Part shown: positions 14,807-17,741 of the stretch, piece after piece
How positions within the stretch are numbered: position 1 is the stretch's first letter
Layout of the letters: each line of letters begins with the position of its first letter
Position numbers and translations under genes: made by a program
Notes under the pieces: generated by a model
Told to the model about the DNA's origin: nothing
The model's database searches: none
Seen by the model: the letters and a program-made list of their open reading frames with translations, nothing else
Source of the DNA: Bacteroidota bacterium
GTDB lineage: Bacteria > Bacteroidota > Bacteroidia > Chitinophagales > Saprospiraceae
Direction: 5' to 3'
Assembly: GCA_006226345.1 (NCBI GenBank)
Contig: SBHD01000127.1
Coordinates: 1-34,634, forward strand
DNA: 34,634 nucleotides

Positions 14807-16345
14807 TTAGAACGGAATATCCTCGTCGTTCATCCGGGAGGGCATCGTGATCGAGCTCGGCGAAAAGGGTCCGGTCAGCGGGTCGCCAAGGCCGGCGAAG
14901 GCCGGATCGTCCAGGTTGCCGAACTTGGCAAACTGATCGGTAAACTTCAGTTTGACGGTATCCAGGGCACCATGCCGGTGCTTGGCCACGATAAATTCCG
15001 CCACCCCTTTTAACGACATCCCCTGCTCGTCTTCCAGGATGCCATAATATTCGGGCCGGTAGATAAAGGACACTATATCCGCATCCTGTTCAATGGCGCC
15101 CGATTCGCGCAGGTCACTAAGTTGCGGGCGCTTGCTGCCGCCCCGCACCTCCACTGCCCGGCTGAGCTGCGAAAGGGCAATGACCGGCACCGACAATTCT
15201 TTCGCCATGTTTTTCAGCGCCCGTGAAATACCGGCAATCTCCTGTTCCCGGTTAGCGTTCCGGTTGTTTTCCGAAGCCCCCGTCATCAGCTGCAGGTAGT
15301 CGATAATGACTAACTGGATATCGTGCTGCATCTTTAGACGGCGGCACTTGGCTCGTAATTCAAAAATATTGATACCAGGCGTATCGTCGATGAAGATCGG
15401 CACATTGGACAGCCGCTCGACTGTTGTCTGGAGTTGCTGCCATTCGTAATCCTCCAACTTGCCGTTCCGCATTTTCGAACCTGCGATTTCAGATTCCATG
15501 GAGATCAGGCGCTGCACCAACTGGGTGCTGGCCATCTCCAGGGAGAATACAGCCACACCTTTTTCGAAGTCCCGGGCAGCATTCAGCGCCATTGCCAGCA
15601 CACAAGAGGTTTTACCCATACCCGGCCGGGCGGCAAGAATGATCAAGTCGGACGGCTGCCAGCCTGACGTAAGCCGGTCGAGGTCGGTAAATCCGGTGGG
15701 CACACCAGTCAGGCCATCGGCTTTGGTCGACAGTTCCTCGACCTGCTTCAGCACCCGGCTGCTGAGCGTACCCATGCTCTCAAACGTACGGCTCAGGTTG
15801 TTTTGGGTGATGGCAAACAGGCCTTTCTCGGCATCGTCCAGCAGGTTAAACACATCGGTGGTGTCCTCATAGGCATCCTTGATAGTCCGCGTGCTTACCT
15901 GGATAAGTTCGCGCTGGATGTGTTTCTGGGCAATGATCCGGGCATGGTACTCGATATTGGCGGCGGAAGCCACCCGGTTGGTGAGTTCGACAAGATAGTA
16001 ACTGCCGCCTATCCGGTCCAGTTCGCCGGTTTTGCGCAATTCTTCCGTGACTGTCAGGATATCTACCGGATTAGAGCGTTCAAAAAGCCGGATGATCGCC
16101 TGGTAAATATATTTGTGGGCTTCCAGGTAAAAACTTTCCGGCCGGAGGATATCCATGACGACCGGGAGCGCCTCCCGGTCTAGCATCAACGCACCCAATA
16201 CGGCCTCCTCCAGGGGCAGTGCCTGGGGCTGTACTTTACCAAAAACATAGTTGGACAGGGCCTCTCCGCCGCCGGAAGTGTTCCGTTGGGATTTCCCCTT
16301 GGTGGAGCCACTGCGTGTTTCCCTGTTTTCGTTCATTTCCGCCAT
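14807..16345 (-). CDS. dnaB: Replicative DNA helicase DnaB
   Basis: This 512-residue hexameric helicase unwinds DNA 5'->3' at the replication fork and interacts with primase. An N-terminal basic, low-complexity stretch of about 30 residues precedes the DnaB N-terminal domain (PLEEAVLGALMLDREALP, about 44-61). The RecA-like domain has Walker A AARPGMGKTS (Lys245, Thr246), a glutamate in VFSLEM (270), Walker B VIIDYLQLM (Asp349) and the DnaB-specific SQLSRAVE and DLRESGAIEQDAD motifs. No intein interrupts it. The start at 16345 (MAEMNENRE) lies 25 bases after a -7 element; the Met at 16336 is an alternative. DnaA boxes lie just upstream, which suits replication-linked control. Confidence 0.97.
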   Translation of the reverse strand: MAEMNENRETRSGSTKGKSQRNTSGGGEALSNYVFGKVQPQALPLEEAVLGALMLDREALPVVMDILRPESFYLEAHKYIYQAIIRLFERSNPVDILTVTEELRKTGELDRIGGSYYLVELTNRVASAANIEYHARIIAQKHIQRELIQVSTRTIKDAYEDTTDVFNLLDDAEKGLFAITQNNLSRTFESMGTLSSRVLKQVEELSTKADGLTGVPTGFTDLDRLTSGWQPSDLIILAARPGMGKTSCVLAMALNAARDFEKGVAVFSLEMASTQLVQRLISMESEIAGSKMRNGKLEDYEWQQLQTTVERLSNVPIFIDDTPGINIFELRAKCRRLKMQHDIQLVIIDYLQLMTGASENNRNANREQEIAGISRALKNMAKELSVPVIALSQLSRAVEVRGGSKRPQLSDLRESGAIEQDADIVSFIYRPEYYGILEDEQGMSLKGVAEFIVAKHRHGALDTVKLKFTDQFAKFGNLDDPAFAGLGDPLTGPFSPSSITMPSRMNDEDIPF

Positions 16346-16370
16346 GGTTTTGCTCGACGTTTGCCGGATA

Positions 16371-16378
16371 CAAACCTA
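16371..16378 (-). promoter_or_regulatory. -7 promoter element for dnaB
   Basis: CAAACCTA on the plus strand reads TAGGTTTG on the minus strand, a perfect TAnnTTTG, 25 bases upstream of the dnaB ATG. No well-spaced -33 element was found. The cluster of DnaA boxes begins about 54 bases further upstream. Confidence 0.6.
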
Positions 16379-16431
16379 GTTCTTAATCTGCAATCTGTTT
16401 ATTTCCAAACATTCCGTATCACCCGAATCCT

Positions 16432-16508
16432 GTGGAAAACCCCTGCAAATTTTGTGGATAAATAAAAAAACAATGCAAGTTATCCACAATCACCGACCTT
16501 TTTCCACA
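16432..16508. other. Symmetric cluster of four DnaA boxes (candidate origin or DnaA-controlled region)
   Basis: Four 9-mers match the DnaA box consensus TTWTNCACA. They are TTTTCCACA on minus (16432-16440), TTATCCACA on minus (16453-16461), TTATCCACA on plus (16480-16488) and TTTTCCACA on plus (16500-16508). The pairs are nested around a common centre near 16470, with gaps of 12, 18 and 11 bases. An A-rich stretch (AATAAAAAAACAA) lies between the two perfect boxes. The rest of the 588-base gene-free region 16346-16933 holds A/T-rich tracts (16661-16740), the dnaB promoter at one end and a terminator at the other. Confidence 0.8.
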
Positions 16509-16660
16509 CTGTTCAGGCCAGCAAAAAAATTCCGTTTGGAATTAACCGCATGTGTTAAAAGCGTGACCTGTAATACTTTACATTGGCTTAACATTCGGCG
16601 TTTCCAGCCGTTCGGTCAGCCGTAATTTTCATATTCCACAATGCCGTCAAAGGGCTGCAG

Positions 16661-16740
16661 AAAAATCCGGCCTGTGAAAAAAAAATTGGTACGCAATTTC
16701 GTCTCTCAAAGTTAACAACTTTTGTTTTAAACAGCAAATA
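16661..16740. other. A/T-rich segment in the intergenic region next to the DnaA-box cluster
   Basis: Runs of A and T dominate here (for example GAAAAAAAAATTGG, then AAAGTTAACAACTTTTG, which can form a small hairpin, then GTTTTAAACAG). It is a candidate duplex-unwinding element if the DnaA-box cluster is an origin. This is assigned by position and composition only. Confidence 0.3.
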
Positions 16741-16870
16741 TCTCCCGGGCACCGGATAAAACTTTTTGATTGATCAATTTCTGCACGGTATCCGGTTTTA
16801 AAGGTGTTTTTTTAGGCTGGTTTTGCGGTCCGGGGTATTTTGTTAAACTAATGATCCGGCAAGGTTCAAC

Positions 16871-16906
16871 AAAAAAGCCACCCCCGTACCGGGATGGCTT
16901 TTTTTT
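16871..16906 (-). terminator. Intrinsic terminator of the coiled-coil exported protein gene
   Basis: AAAAAAGCCA (16871-16880) pairs with TGGCTTTTTT (within 16895-16906) around an inner CCC/GGG stem. On the minus strand the stem ends in a T-run. It lies about 28 bases past the stop at 16934. The symmetric A/T flanks would also stop plus-strand transcription. Confidence 0.8.
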
Positions 16907-16933
16907 GAAACAAAATGTATCTGGCGGACCGGG

Positions 16934-17620
16934 CTACTGGCGTTCATTCTCCACATTGCCCTGTCGGACACGAGCCTGTTCTACTGCCTCGCGCTGCTTC
17001 TCGATATCGATCAGGGTGGCCTCCTGGTCTTTCTGGTTTTGAACTAGGTCCTCCTCTGCCTGCTTCAGGCGGGACTTATAGGTTTCGATATTGCTGTTCA
17101 GGTTATTGTTGTCCCGCTCCAGCCGCCGCAGTTTATTCTCCAGGTCCTTGAGTTTCTTTTCTTCATCCTTGACCTCAAGACCGACAACGGACCGGCGCAC
17201 TTCGTAGTAAAAGGTAGTCAGCAGCTCGGTAGTGGAATTCGTGTGCACTGCATCATCGCGCCGGTTGAGAAAATACTGCCCTACGTCAAACCAGGCATTC
17301 AGCCGGGCCCCGTCGCCGATACTCTCTACTTCGGAATACACCGAGAAGCCCGACGAACTTACACTGGCCGAGGAGCACCCCGTGGCCGACTTTTCACCGC
17401 GTTTGCCGCGCTTGAGTTTGCTGCTGAAGTTATTCCGGACAAAATCAGTCCATACATCCTCCACCACCCGTTTATCCGTATTGGGGAAATCCACCGAAAA
17501 CCCCGGACGGGTCCCAAACGACATGGACTTTTCCATTTCACTGACCATATTGAACTGCGAAAAAGCCGGGCAAGCTAGTGTACCGGCCAATGCAAGGATC
17601 AAAAAGACTTTTAATCGCAT
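16934..17620 (-). CDS. Exported coiled-coil protein of unknown function
   Basis: I do not recognise this 228-residue protein. It begins with a good signal peptide (MRLKVFLILALAGTLACPAF, cleavage near SQF); the ATG at 17620 is chosen for that reason over the longer frame to 17662. A middle part of about 110 residues follows, holding a basic KLKRGKRGEKSATG stretch then a Ser-rich patch. The last ~75 residues (about 150-228) are a highly charged coiled coil (KDEEKKLKDLENKLRRLERD then more heptads to the end). It is probably periplasmic or surface-associated, possibly oligomeric. It is transcribed away from the response regulator gene, with a shared 400-base intergenic region containing a 25-base dyad. 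Confidence 0.72.
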   Translation of the reverse strand: MRLKVFLILALAGTLACPAFSQFNMVSEMEKSMSFGTRPGFSVDFPNTDKRVVEDVWTDFVRNNFSSKLKRGKRGEKSATGCSSASVSSSGFSVYSEVESIGDGARLNAWFDVGQYFLNRRDDAVHTNSTTELLTTFYYEVRRSVVGLEVKDEEKKLKDLENKLRRLERDNNNLNSNIETYKSRLKQAEEDLVQNQKDQEATLIDIEKQREAVEQARVRQGNVENERQ

Positions 17621-17741
17621 AATGTGTTTTATTGGTGAAAAAATCCGCACGCCAGACACCACGACCTGCAGCGCAACGCACGACCGGGCCCCGGCTGTTT
17701 TATCTTGTTACGAAGAGAAACAGCCGAGGTCACCCTGTCCT

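What the first reader, a model, noticed from the sequence alone, without database searches (positions are those of the whole stretch)
16346..16933. Nested symmetric DnaA boxes in a gene-free region upstream of dnaB: candidate chromosomal origin
Seen: four exact DnaA-box-type 9-mers in 77 bases form two nested inverted pairs. The inner pair is TTATCCACA and the outer pair TTTTCCACA, both centred near 16470, with an A-rich stretch between the inner boxes and A/T-rich tracts at 16661-16740. The 588-base region carries no gene and abuts dnaB. Known: bacterial origins combine clustered DnaA boxes with an A/T-rich unwinding element, and in Bacteroidota the origin need not lie beside dnaA. Inference: this is oriC, or a DnaA-titrating or dnaB-regulating site. 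Weak support: 8 of 12 genes to the left run on the minus strand and 8 of 13 to the right on the plus strand.
Basis: partly seen in the sequence, partly recalled or inferred. Interest (0 to 1): 0.72.

Follow-up and report, generated by a model that had tools for sequence, protein, structure and literature searches.

The report
DnaA-box array controlling dnaB promoter
Four binding sites for the replication starter protein DnaA sit in a fixed pattern in front of the gene for the replication helicase, not as the chromosome's starting point but most likely as a switch that ties helicase production to the replication cycle in this family of bacteria.

Summary
The four DnaA boxes (16431-16508) are real, exact and unlikely by chance; the nested arrangement occurs once in the genome. 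They are probably not oriC. In three closed or near-closed relatives of the same family the GC-skew origin falls at or next to COX15/ctaA, 0.46-1.1 Mb from dnaB; a closer relative shows no skew step at dnaB, and neither does the window. Instead the boxes form a conserved element tied to the dnaB promoter: 28 of 106 distinct dnaB upstream regions carry four boxes at 20/27/21-22 bp. In 27 of those 28 a Bacteroidota-type -7 motif (TAnnTTTG) lies 59-63 bp past the start of box 4 (0.21 expected), while that motif's distance to the start codon varies from 12 to 252 bp. A further 28 of 42 Saprospiraceae-like regions keep only the promoter-proximal direct pair. Box clusters also lie upstream of nrdB, including this genome's own. 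Best explanation: a DnaA-responsive promoter element for dnaB, probably activating; a new variant of a known kind, since DnaA control of dnaB is reported for Caulobacter. DnaA binding, the direction of regulation and the origin of the window's own genus are inferred, not shown.

The parts
16500..16508 (+). box 1 (outer, promoter-distal), TTTTCCACA; about -142 to -134 from the predicted start of transcription
   Evidence: conserved spacing
16480..16488 (+). box 2 (inner), TTATCCACA
16462..16479 (.). A-rich spacer between the inner boxes (78% A+T)
16453..16461 (-). box 3 (inner), TTATCCACA
16431..16439 (-). box 4 (outer, promoter-proximal), TTTTCCACA; about -73 to -65 from the predicted start of transcription
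16403..16420 (-). conserved block ACGGAwTGTTT(g)gAA, beginning 20-23 bp after the start of box 4; second regulator site or extended promoter element (function unknown)
   Evidence: alignment of 22 regions; motif found in 25 of 28 array loci
16371..16378 (-). predicted -7 promoter element TAGGTTTG (Bacteroidota TAnnTTTG), 61 bp after the start of box 4; predicted transcription start near 16366
   Evidence: consensus and 4-5 nt spacing to the start site from passages of PMC6847099
14807..16345 (-). dnaB, replicative helicase, 512 aa, the regulated gene
   Evidence: Pfam PF00772 and PF03796
16882..16894 (-). terminator-like hairpin with T tail between the upstream co-directional ORF (16934-17662) and the dnaB promoter
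   Evidence: 3 such sites found in the region, 1.4 expected in shuffles, so weak

Best explanation
The four boxes are the operator of the dnaB promoter. DnaA binds the two outward-facing pairs in a fixed geometry (20/27/22 bp) about 65-142 bp upstream of the dnaB transcription start, and controls transcription of the replicative helicase gene. The array lies upstream of the core promoter at a fixed and perhaps helix-phased distance, so activation by contact with RNA polymerase is more likely (my estimate 65:35) than repression. dnaB would then belong to a DnaA regulon that also includes nrdB, so helicase and dNTP supply follow DnaA activity. Shown here: the boxes, their conservation, the fixed spacing to a Bacteroidota-type promoter motif, and an origin elsewhere in relatives. 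Inferred: that DnaA is the binder, the direction of regulation, and that this genome's own origin is not here.
For: 28 of 106 distinct dnaB upstream regions carry the array with 7 or fewer of 36 box positions mismatched; at 5 or fewer the count is 27, spaced 20/27/22 in 24 and 20/27/21 in 3. In one search ten shuffles per region gave no score below 11.2 in the rows printed (the output was cut). In 27 of 28 array regions TAnnTTTG lies 59-63 bp after the start of box 4 (sd 0.9; 0.21 expected within 55-66), while that motif's distance to the ATG varies from 12 to 252 bp. Of 42 Saprospiraceae-like regions (DnaB identity 66% or more) without the full array, 28 keep the promoter-proximal pair at 21-22 bp with 2 or fewer mismatches in 18 positions (none of 840 shuffles did; 1% had 3); 15 of these 28 have TAnnTTTG at 57-65 bp (0.21 expected), 9 others at 42-84 bp, 4 none in range. 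The 9 lie near 10.5-bp phase (R 0.89; p about 0.03 if independent). Own DnaA has a normal DNA-binding domain (PF08299). Boxes upstream of nrdB: 51 in 22 loci, 3.3 per kb against 0.029 per kb in the own genome; 14 of 22 loci have two or more, including the own genome.
Against: No binding or expression data. The -7 motif here is TAGGTTTG, and most of the 22 relatives aligned have G at the fourth position, whereas the refined Flavobacterium johnsoniae consensus excludes G at the two middle positions (PMC6847099 passage); I saw no conserved TTTG -33 element at the usual spacing. The full array is missing from 78 of 106 regions (42 Saprospiraceae-like, 36 more distant), and no boxes were found upstream of dnaB in G057 and G062 (exact boxes for G062, variant boxes too for G057). 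Boxes 1-3 in relatives often deviate from the DnaA consensus (C to A at position 6 in 19 of 112 boxes), so another protein could be the binder.
Confidence: 0.8

Rival explanations
1. Chromosomal origin of replication (oriC) with the DnaA boxes as initiator sites and the A/T-rich tract as unwinding element.
For: Clustered exact boxes, A/T-rich tract. In the same-genus genomes G040 and G141 the COX15 locus has only 0 and 1 exact boxes within 1.5 kb of the domain, and 8 of 25 COX15 loci have one or none, so the origin of the window's own genus is not placed directly. The skew step measured at dnaB in the three closed or near-closed genomes is also positive, though within 1.5 standard errors of zero (0.015 +/- 0.014, 0.007 +/- 0.012, 0.013 +/- 0.009).
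Against: GC-skew fits place the origin at or next to COX15 in G057 (about 740 kb from dnaB), G062 (1.1 Mb) and G174 (about 460 kb, although its dnaB has three upstream boxes); residual sums of squares are 1.85 to 3.0 times larger with the origin at dnaB. G199, whose DnaB is 84-86% identical, shows no step at dnaB: -0.004 +/- 0.007 against +0.025 to +0.031 at COX15 in the other three. The own genome has 5 exact boxes in 4 kb at COX15 with an 88% A+T 50-mer, against at most 72% here. Coupling to the dnaB promoter is not expected of an origin.
Confidence: 0.07
2. DnaA-titrating or reactivating site of the datA/DARS type that happens to lie upstream of dnaB.
For: Ordered DnaA boxes outside the inferred origin.
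Against: The array keeps a fixed distance to a promoter motif, not just a location near dnaB, and similar clusters lie upstream of nrdB. Four boxes are few for titration in a genome with 152 exact boxes.
Confidence: 0.07
3. Operator of the dnaB promoter bound by a protein other than DnaA that recognises TTWTCMACA-like sites.
For: Systematic variants such as TTACCAACA and TTATCAACA in relatives, and a second conserved block next to the promoter.
Against: The commonest word at all four sites is TTWTCCACA, the canonical DnaA box, the same word clusters at the COX15/skew origin, and the own DnaA has the standard DNA-binding domain.
Confidence: 0.06

Closest known systems
DnaA regulon promoters: dnaB of Caulobacter crescentus (Hottes et al. 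2005, as cited in review PMC8203912; passage seen)
   Same: predicted DnaA boxes upstream of dnaB; [quoted passage not shown]
   Different: here, an ordered four-box nested array with conserved 20/27/22 spacing tied to a Bacteroidota-type promoter motif; different phylum; I did not compare with the Caulobacter sequence
E. coli nrdAB promoter regulated by DnaA (PMC8203912 passages)
   Same: multiple DnaA boxes at a promoter for a replication-supply gene; in this family box clusters also lie upstream of nrdB
   Different: other gene, box number and geometry; nucleotide-state dependence untested here
Bacterial oriC
   Same: clustered DnaA boxes and A/T-rich DNA
   Different: no skew step; origin maps to COX15 in three relatives; promoter-coupled
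E. coli datA/DARS (recalled)
   Same: DnaA boxes outside oriC
   Different: no sign of the other defining parts was sought; location tied to a promoter

Membership tests
bacterial oriC | cluster of DnaA boxes | tested here: met
bacterial oriC | A/T-rich unwinding element next to the boxes | tested here: inconclusive
   69-72% A+T tracts against 47% window mean; own COX15 locus reaches 88%
bacterial oriC | GC-skew change from negative to positive at the site | tested here: not met
   window negative on both sides; no step at dnaB in G199; origin at or next to COX15 in G057, G062, G174. The own genome is in 410 contigs and could not be tested whole
bacterial oriC | replication starts there (marker frequency, autonomous replication) | not testable with these tools
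   needs cells
DnaA-regulated promoter | DnaA boxes upstream of the gene, conserved in relatives | tested here: met
   28 of 106 regions with full array; 28 of 42 further Saprospiraceae-like regions with the direct pair
DnaA-regulated promoter | boxes at a constrained distance from the promoter | tested here: met
   27 of 28 at 59-63 bp; promoter itself predicted, not mapped
DnaA-regulated promoter | genome encodes a DnaA with box-binding domain | tested here: met
   PF00308 and PF08299
DnaA-regulated promoter | DnaA binds and transcription depends on it | not testable with these tools
   needs footprinting and reporter assays
datA/DARS | changes DnaA availability or nucleotide state | not testable with these tools
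   needs initiation assays

The most novel reading that the evidence does not exclude
Saprospiraceae use a DnaA-driven feed-forward regulon in which an ordered, helix-phased DnaA array activates the replicative helicase gene, with parallel arrays at nrdB (and perhaps smc), so that DnaA sets helicase and dNTP supply together with initiation. This would be a promoter architecture not described for this phylum as far as my searches show.
Probability: 0.43. Interest if true: 0.6.

Novelty: new variant of a known kind. Interest (0 to 1): 0.48.

Why it matters
Little seems to be in print on DnaA as a transcription regulator in Bacteroidota: in the listings no title or shown start of an abstract is about it, and in the DnaA transcription review PMC8203912 the word stem 'bacteroid' does not occur in the main text. 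A four-site element with a fixed geometry and a fixed promoter distance is a ready-made test system for how DnaA might act on the unusual Bacteroidota RNA polymerase. The work also points to COX15/ctaA as the likely origin in part of the family, which makes origin annotation in fragmented Saprospiraceae genomes testable.

Tried and rejected
oriC at dnaB: rejected on skew in three closed or near-closed relatives and one closer relative. oriC at dnaA: the own dnaA locus (3.5 kb held) has no exact box. Sigma-70 promoters in 16200-17050: none found. GC skew inside the window: uninformative for a fine map because skew follows gene strand. A breakpoint scan of the G199 contig gave its largest step near 600 kb (0.030 +/- 0.012, only two samples beyond it), which I do not interpret. 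The nested box pattern as an oriC marker across the family: 8 of 199 genomes match; 5 at dnaB (G000, G040, G141, G131, G151), 2 in the box-rich COX15 region (G057, G152), 1 elsewhere (G046; gene context not identified). G174's dnaB boxes are three direct repeats, not the nested array, so it shows a non-origin dnaB cluster but not the exact array. Helix phasing of the off-peak distances rests on 9 regions, some from related genomes; 6 of 9 were in phase under the strict rule, and for L049, which has TAnnTTTG at both 32 and 53 bp, I used 53 only. Regions dropped before counts: duplicates with the same last 200 bases and loci with under 150 bases upstream of dnaB; two G174 samples over 55% GC; one G199 sample at dnaB. 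Three of the 25 COX15 genomes (G016, G153, G154) and three of the 22 nrdB genomes (G040, G141, G123) were in the list after their cluster had been seen, which inflates those densities somewhat.

Full report
Observation. The four boxes are at 16431-16508, exactly as described, in the gap between dnaB (start at 16345, minus strand) and the end of the next minus-strand ORF at 16934. The window holds 5 TTWTCCACA against 0.73 expected; the largest of 100 shuffles has 3. The own genome (5.2 Mb, 410 contigs) holds 152 such words; the nested arrangement occurs only here.

Is it the origin? The own genome is too fragmented for a skew curve, so I used relatives of the same family but other genera. In G057 (4.35 Mb main contig of two) 20-kb samples change from mostly negative to mostly positive skew; the best fit puts the origin at 2.06-2.24 Mb, the resolution of the samples. 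All 20 boxes of the 2.036-2.056 Mb sample lie within 8 kb around COX15 (2.051 Mb). dnaB, at 2.788 Mb, is about 740 kb away and has no box. In closed G062 (7.5 Mb) the change lies between 2.27 and 2.63 Mb, where a box pair sits at COX15 (2.348 Mb); dnaB is at 1.23 Mb. In closed G174 (3.9 Mb) a two-breakpoint fit with a gene-strand covariate on 38 of 40 samples puts the origin at 3.68 Mb, where COX15 lies (3,678,438-3,679,427); dnaB, with three upstream boxes, is about 460 kb off. In the three genomes the residual sum of squares is 1.85 to 3.0 times larger with the origin at dnaB. The local step at dnaB in these genomes is weakly positive (0.007-0.015, each within 1.5 standard errors of zero) against 0.025-0.031 at COX15. 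In G199, whose DnaB is 84-86% identical, 19 of 20 samples of a 660-kb contig show no step at dnaB (-0.004 +/- 0.007). The 25 COX15 loci hold 77 exact boxes in 98.5 kb (0.78 per kb) against 0.029 per kb in the own genome; the own COX15 locus has 5. Against this: 8 of 25 COX15 loci have one box or none, among them same-genus G040 (0) and G141 (1), and one of 26 genomes had no COX15 match. So the origin of the window's own genus is inferred rather than placed.

What it is instead. I collected dnaB upstream regions from four searches, 116 in all and 106 distinct. Twenty-eight carry the four boxes at 20/27/21-22 bp with at most 7 of 36 positions mismatched, 27 of them with 5 or fewer. Among 22 distinct regions with DnaB identity of 78% or more, 20 score 5 or less; the exceptions are L047 (11) and L064 (6). 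An alignment of 22 regions shows the array, then a conserved ACGGAwTGTTT block, then TAnnTTTG, mostly with G before TTTG. TAnnTTTG is the published -7 element of Bacteroidota promoters (PMC6847099, passages seen). In 27 of 28 array regions this element starts 59-63 bp after box 4 starts (0.21 expected by shuffling; L064 lacks it), whereas its distance to the start codon runs from 12 to 252 bp. The array therefore keeps its register with the promoter motif, not with the start codon.

Wider family. Of 42 Saprospiraceae-like regions (DnaB identity 66% or more; taxonomy not checked one by one) without the full array, 28 keep two direct boxes (TTWTCMACA, 2 or fewer mismatches in 18 positions) at 21 or 22 bp; none of 840 shuffles did. 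In 15 of these 28 the -7 motif again lies at 57-65 bp (0.21 expected); 9 others have it at 42-84 bp and 4 have none in range. The 9 lie near one or two helical turns off, which is suggestive only. Of 36 more distant regions 9 have such a pair, there at 21-23 bp. The commonest word at all four array sites is TTWTCCACA, with C-to-A at position 6 in 19 of 112 boxes.

A regulon. A TTWTCCACA direct-pair search in 13 genomes hit every one. Besides dnaB and COX15, hits lay upstream of nrdB (G040, G141, G062, G123; confirmed by Pfam for G040, G141 and G123, by eye for G062) and, by eye only, of smc (G153). Other hits had other contexts, for example inside an ORF (G127) or between convergent genes (G123, beside a dihydrofolate reductase gene), and some I did not examine. 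A Pfam search found the nrdB family in 22 of 26 genomes; 14 of the 22 have two or more exact boxes in the 700 bp before the domain (51 boxes in all), among them the own genome (C161, three boxes); three have none. DnaA control of nrdAB is known in E. coli, and dnaB is reported in the DnaA regulon of Caulobacter (PMC8203912, passages).

Mechanism. With the start site placed 4-5 nt after the -7 element (PMC6847099 passage), transcription would begin near 16366 and the boxes would lie at about -142 to -65. That position leaves the core promoter free, which fits activation from upstream better than occlusion. Steps shown: boxes, conservation, promoter register, origin elsewhere in relatives. Steps inferred: DnaA as binder, activation, cell-cycle coupling. 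Doubts: the -7 motif has G where F. johnsoniae avoids it, I saw no conserved -33 element, and nothing was measured.

Verdict. Real, conserved, misread as an origin. It is a promoter element of a known kind (DnaA-controlled replication gene) in a new, ordered form.

Noticed in passing
own genome G000:C264:13223-14859 (locus L280, 1372-3008): COX15/ctaA locus with 5 exact DnaA boxes and an 88% A+T 50-mer: best candidate for this genome's own oriC.
   Followed up: partly
own genome G000:C161:23481-23702 (L305): Three exact boxes plus variant boxes upstream of nrdB (ribonucleotide reductase small subunit); similar clusters with recurrent 10/12/14/54/64 bp spacings in relatives.
   Followed up: partly
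window 16403-16420 (minus strand): Conserved block ACGGAwTGTTTgGAA between array and -7 element in 25 of 28 array-bearing regions; binder unknown.
   Followed up: partly
L116 and L121 (G046:C139:81.9-83.0 kb): 28-29 exact DnaA boxes within 3 kb, no dnaB or COX15 match within the 3 kb held; perhaps an origin or a strong titration site.
   Followed up: no
L234, L236 (G062), L232, L238 (G125), L064-L068 and others: DnaB matches split by, or ending in, long in-frame extensions (open frames of about 850-970 aa in several genomes), which look like inteins in the helicase.
   Followed up: no
L239, L338 (G174:C1:1-40000): 61-62% GC at the start of a genome otherwise mostly 35-46% in my samples: foreign DNA, contamination or misassembly.
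   Followed up: no
several of L078-L104 (Bacteroidales dnaB loci): A recurrent GTTATCAACATCTTATAAACA-like motif close upstream of dnaB (rows), possibly a remnant or variant of the same control.
   Followed up: no
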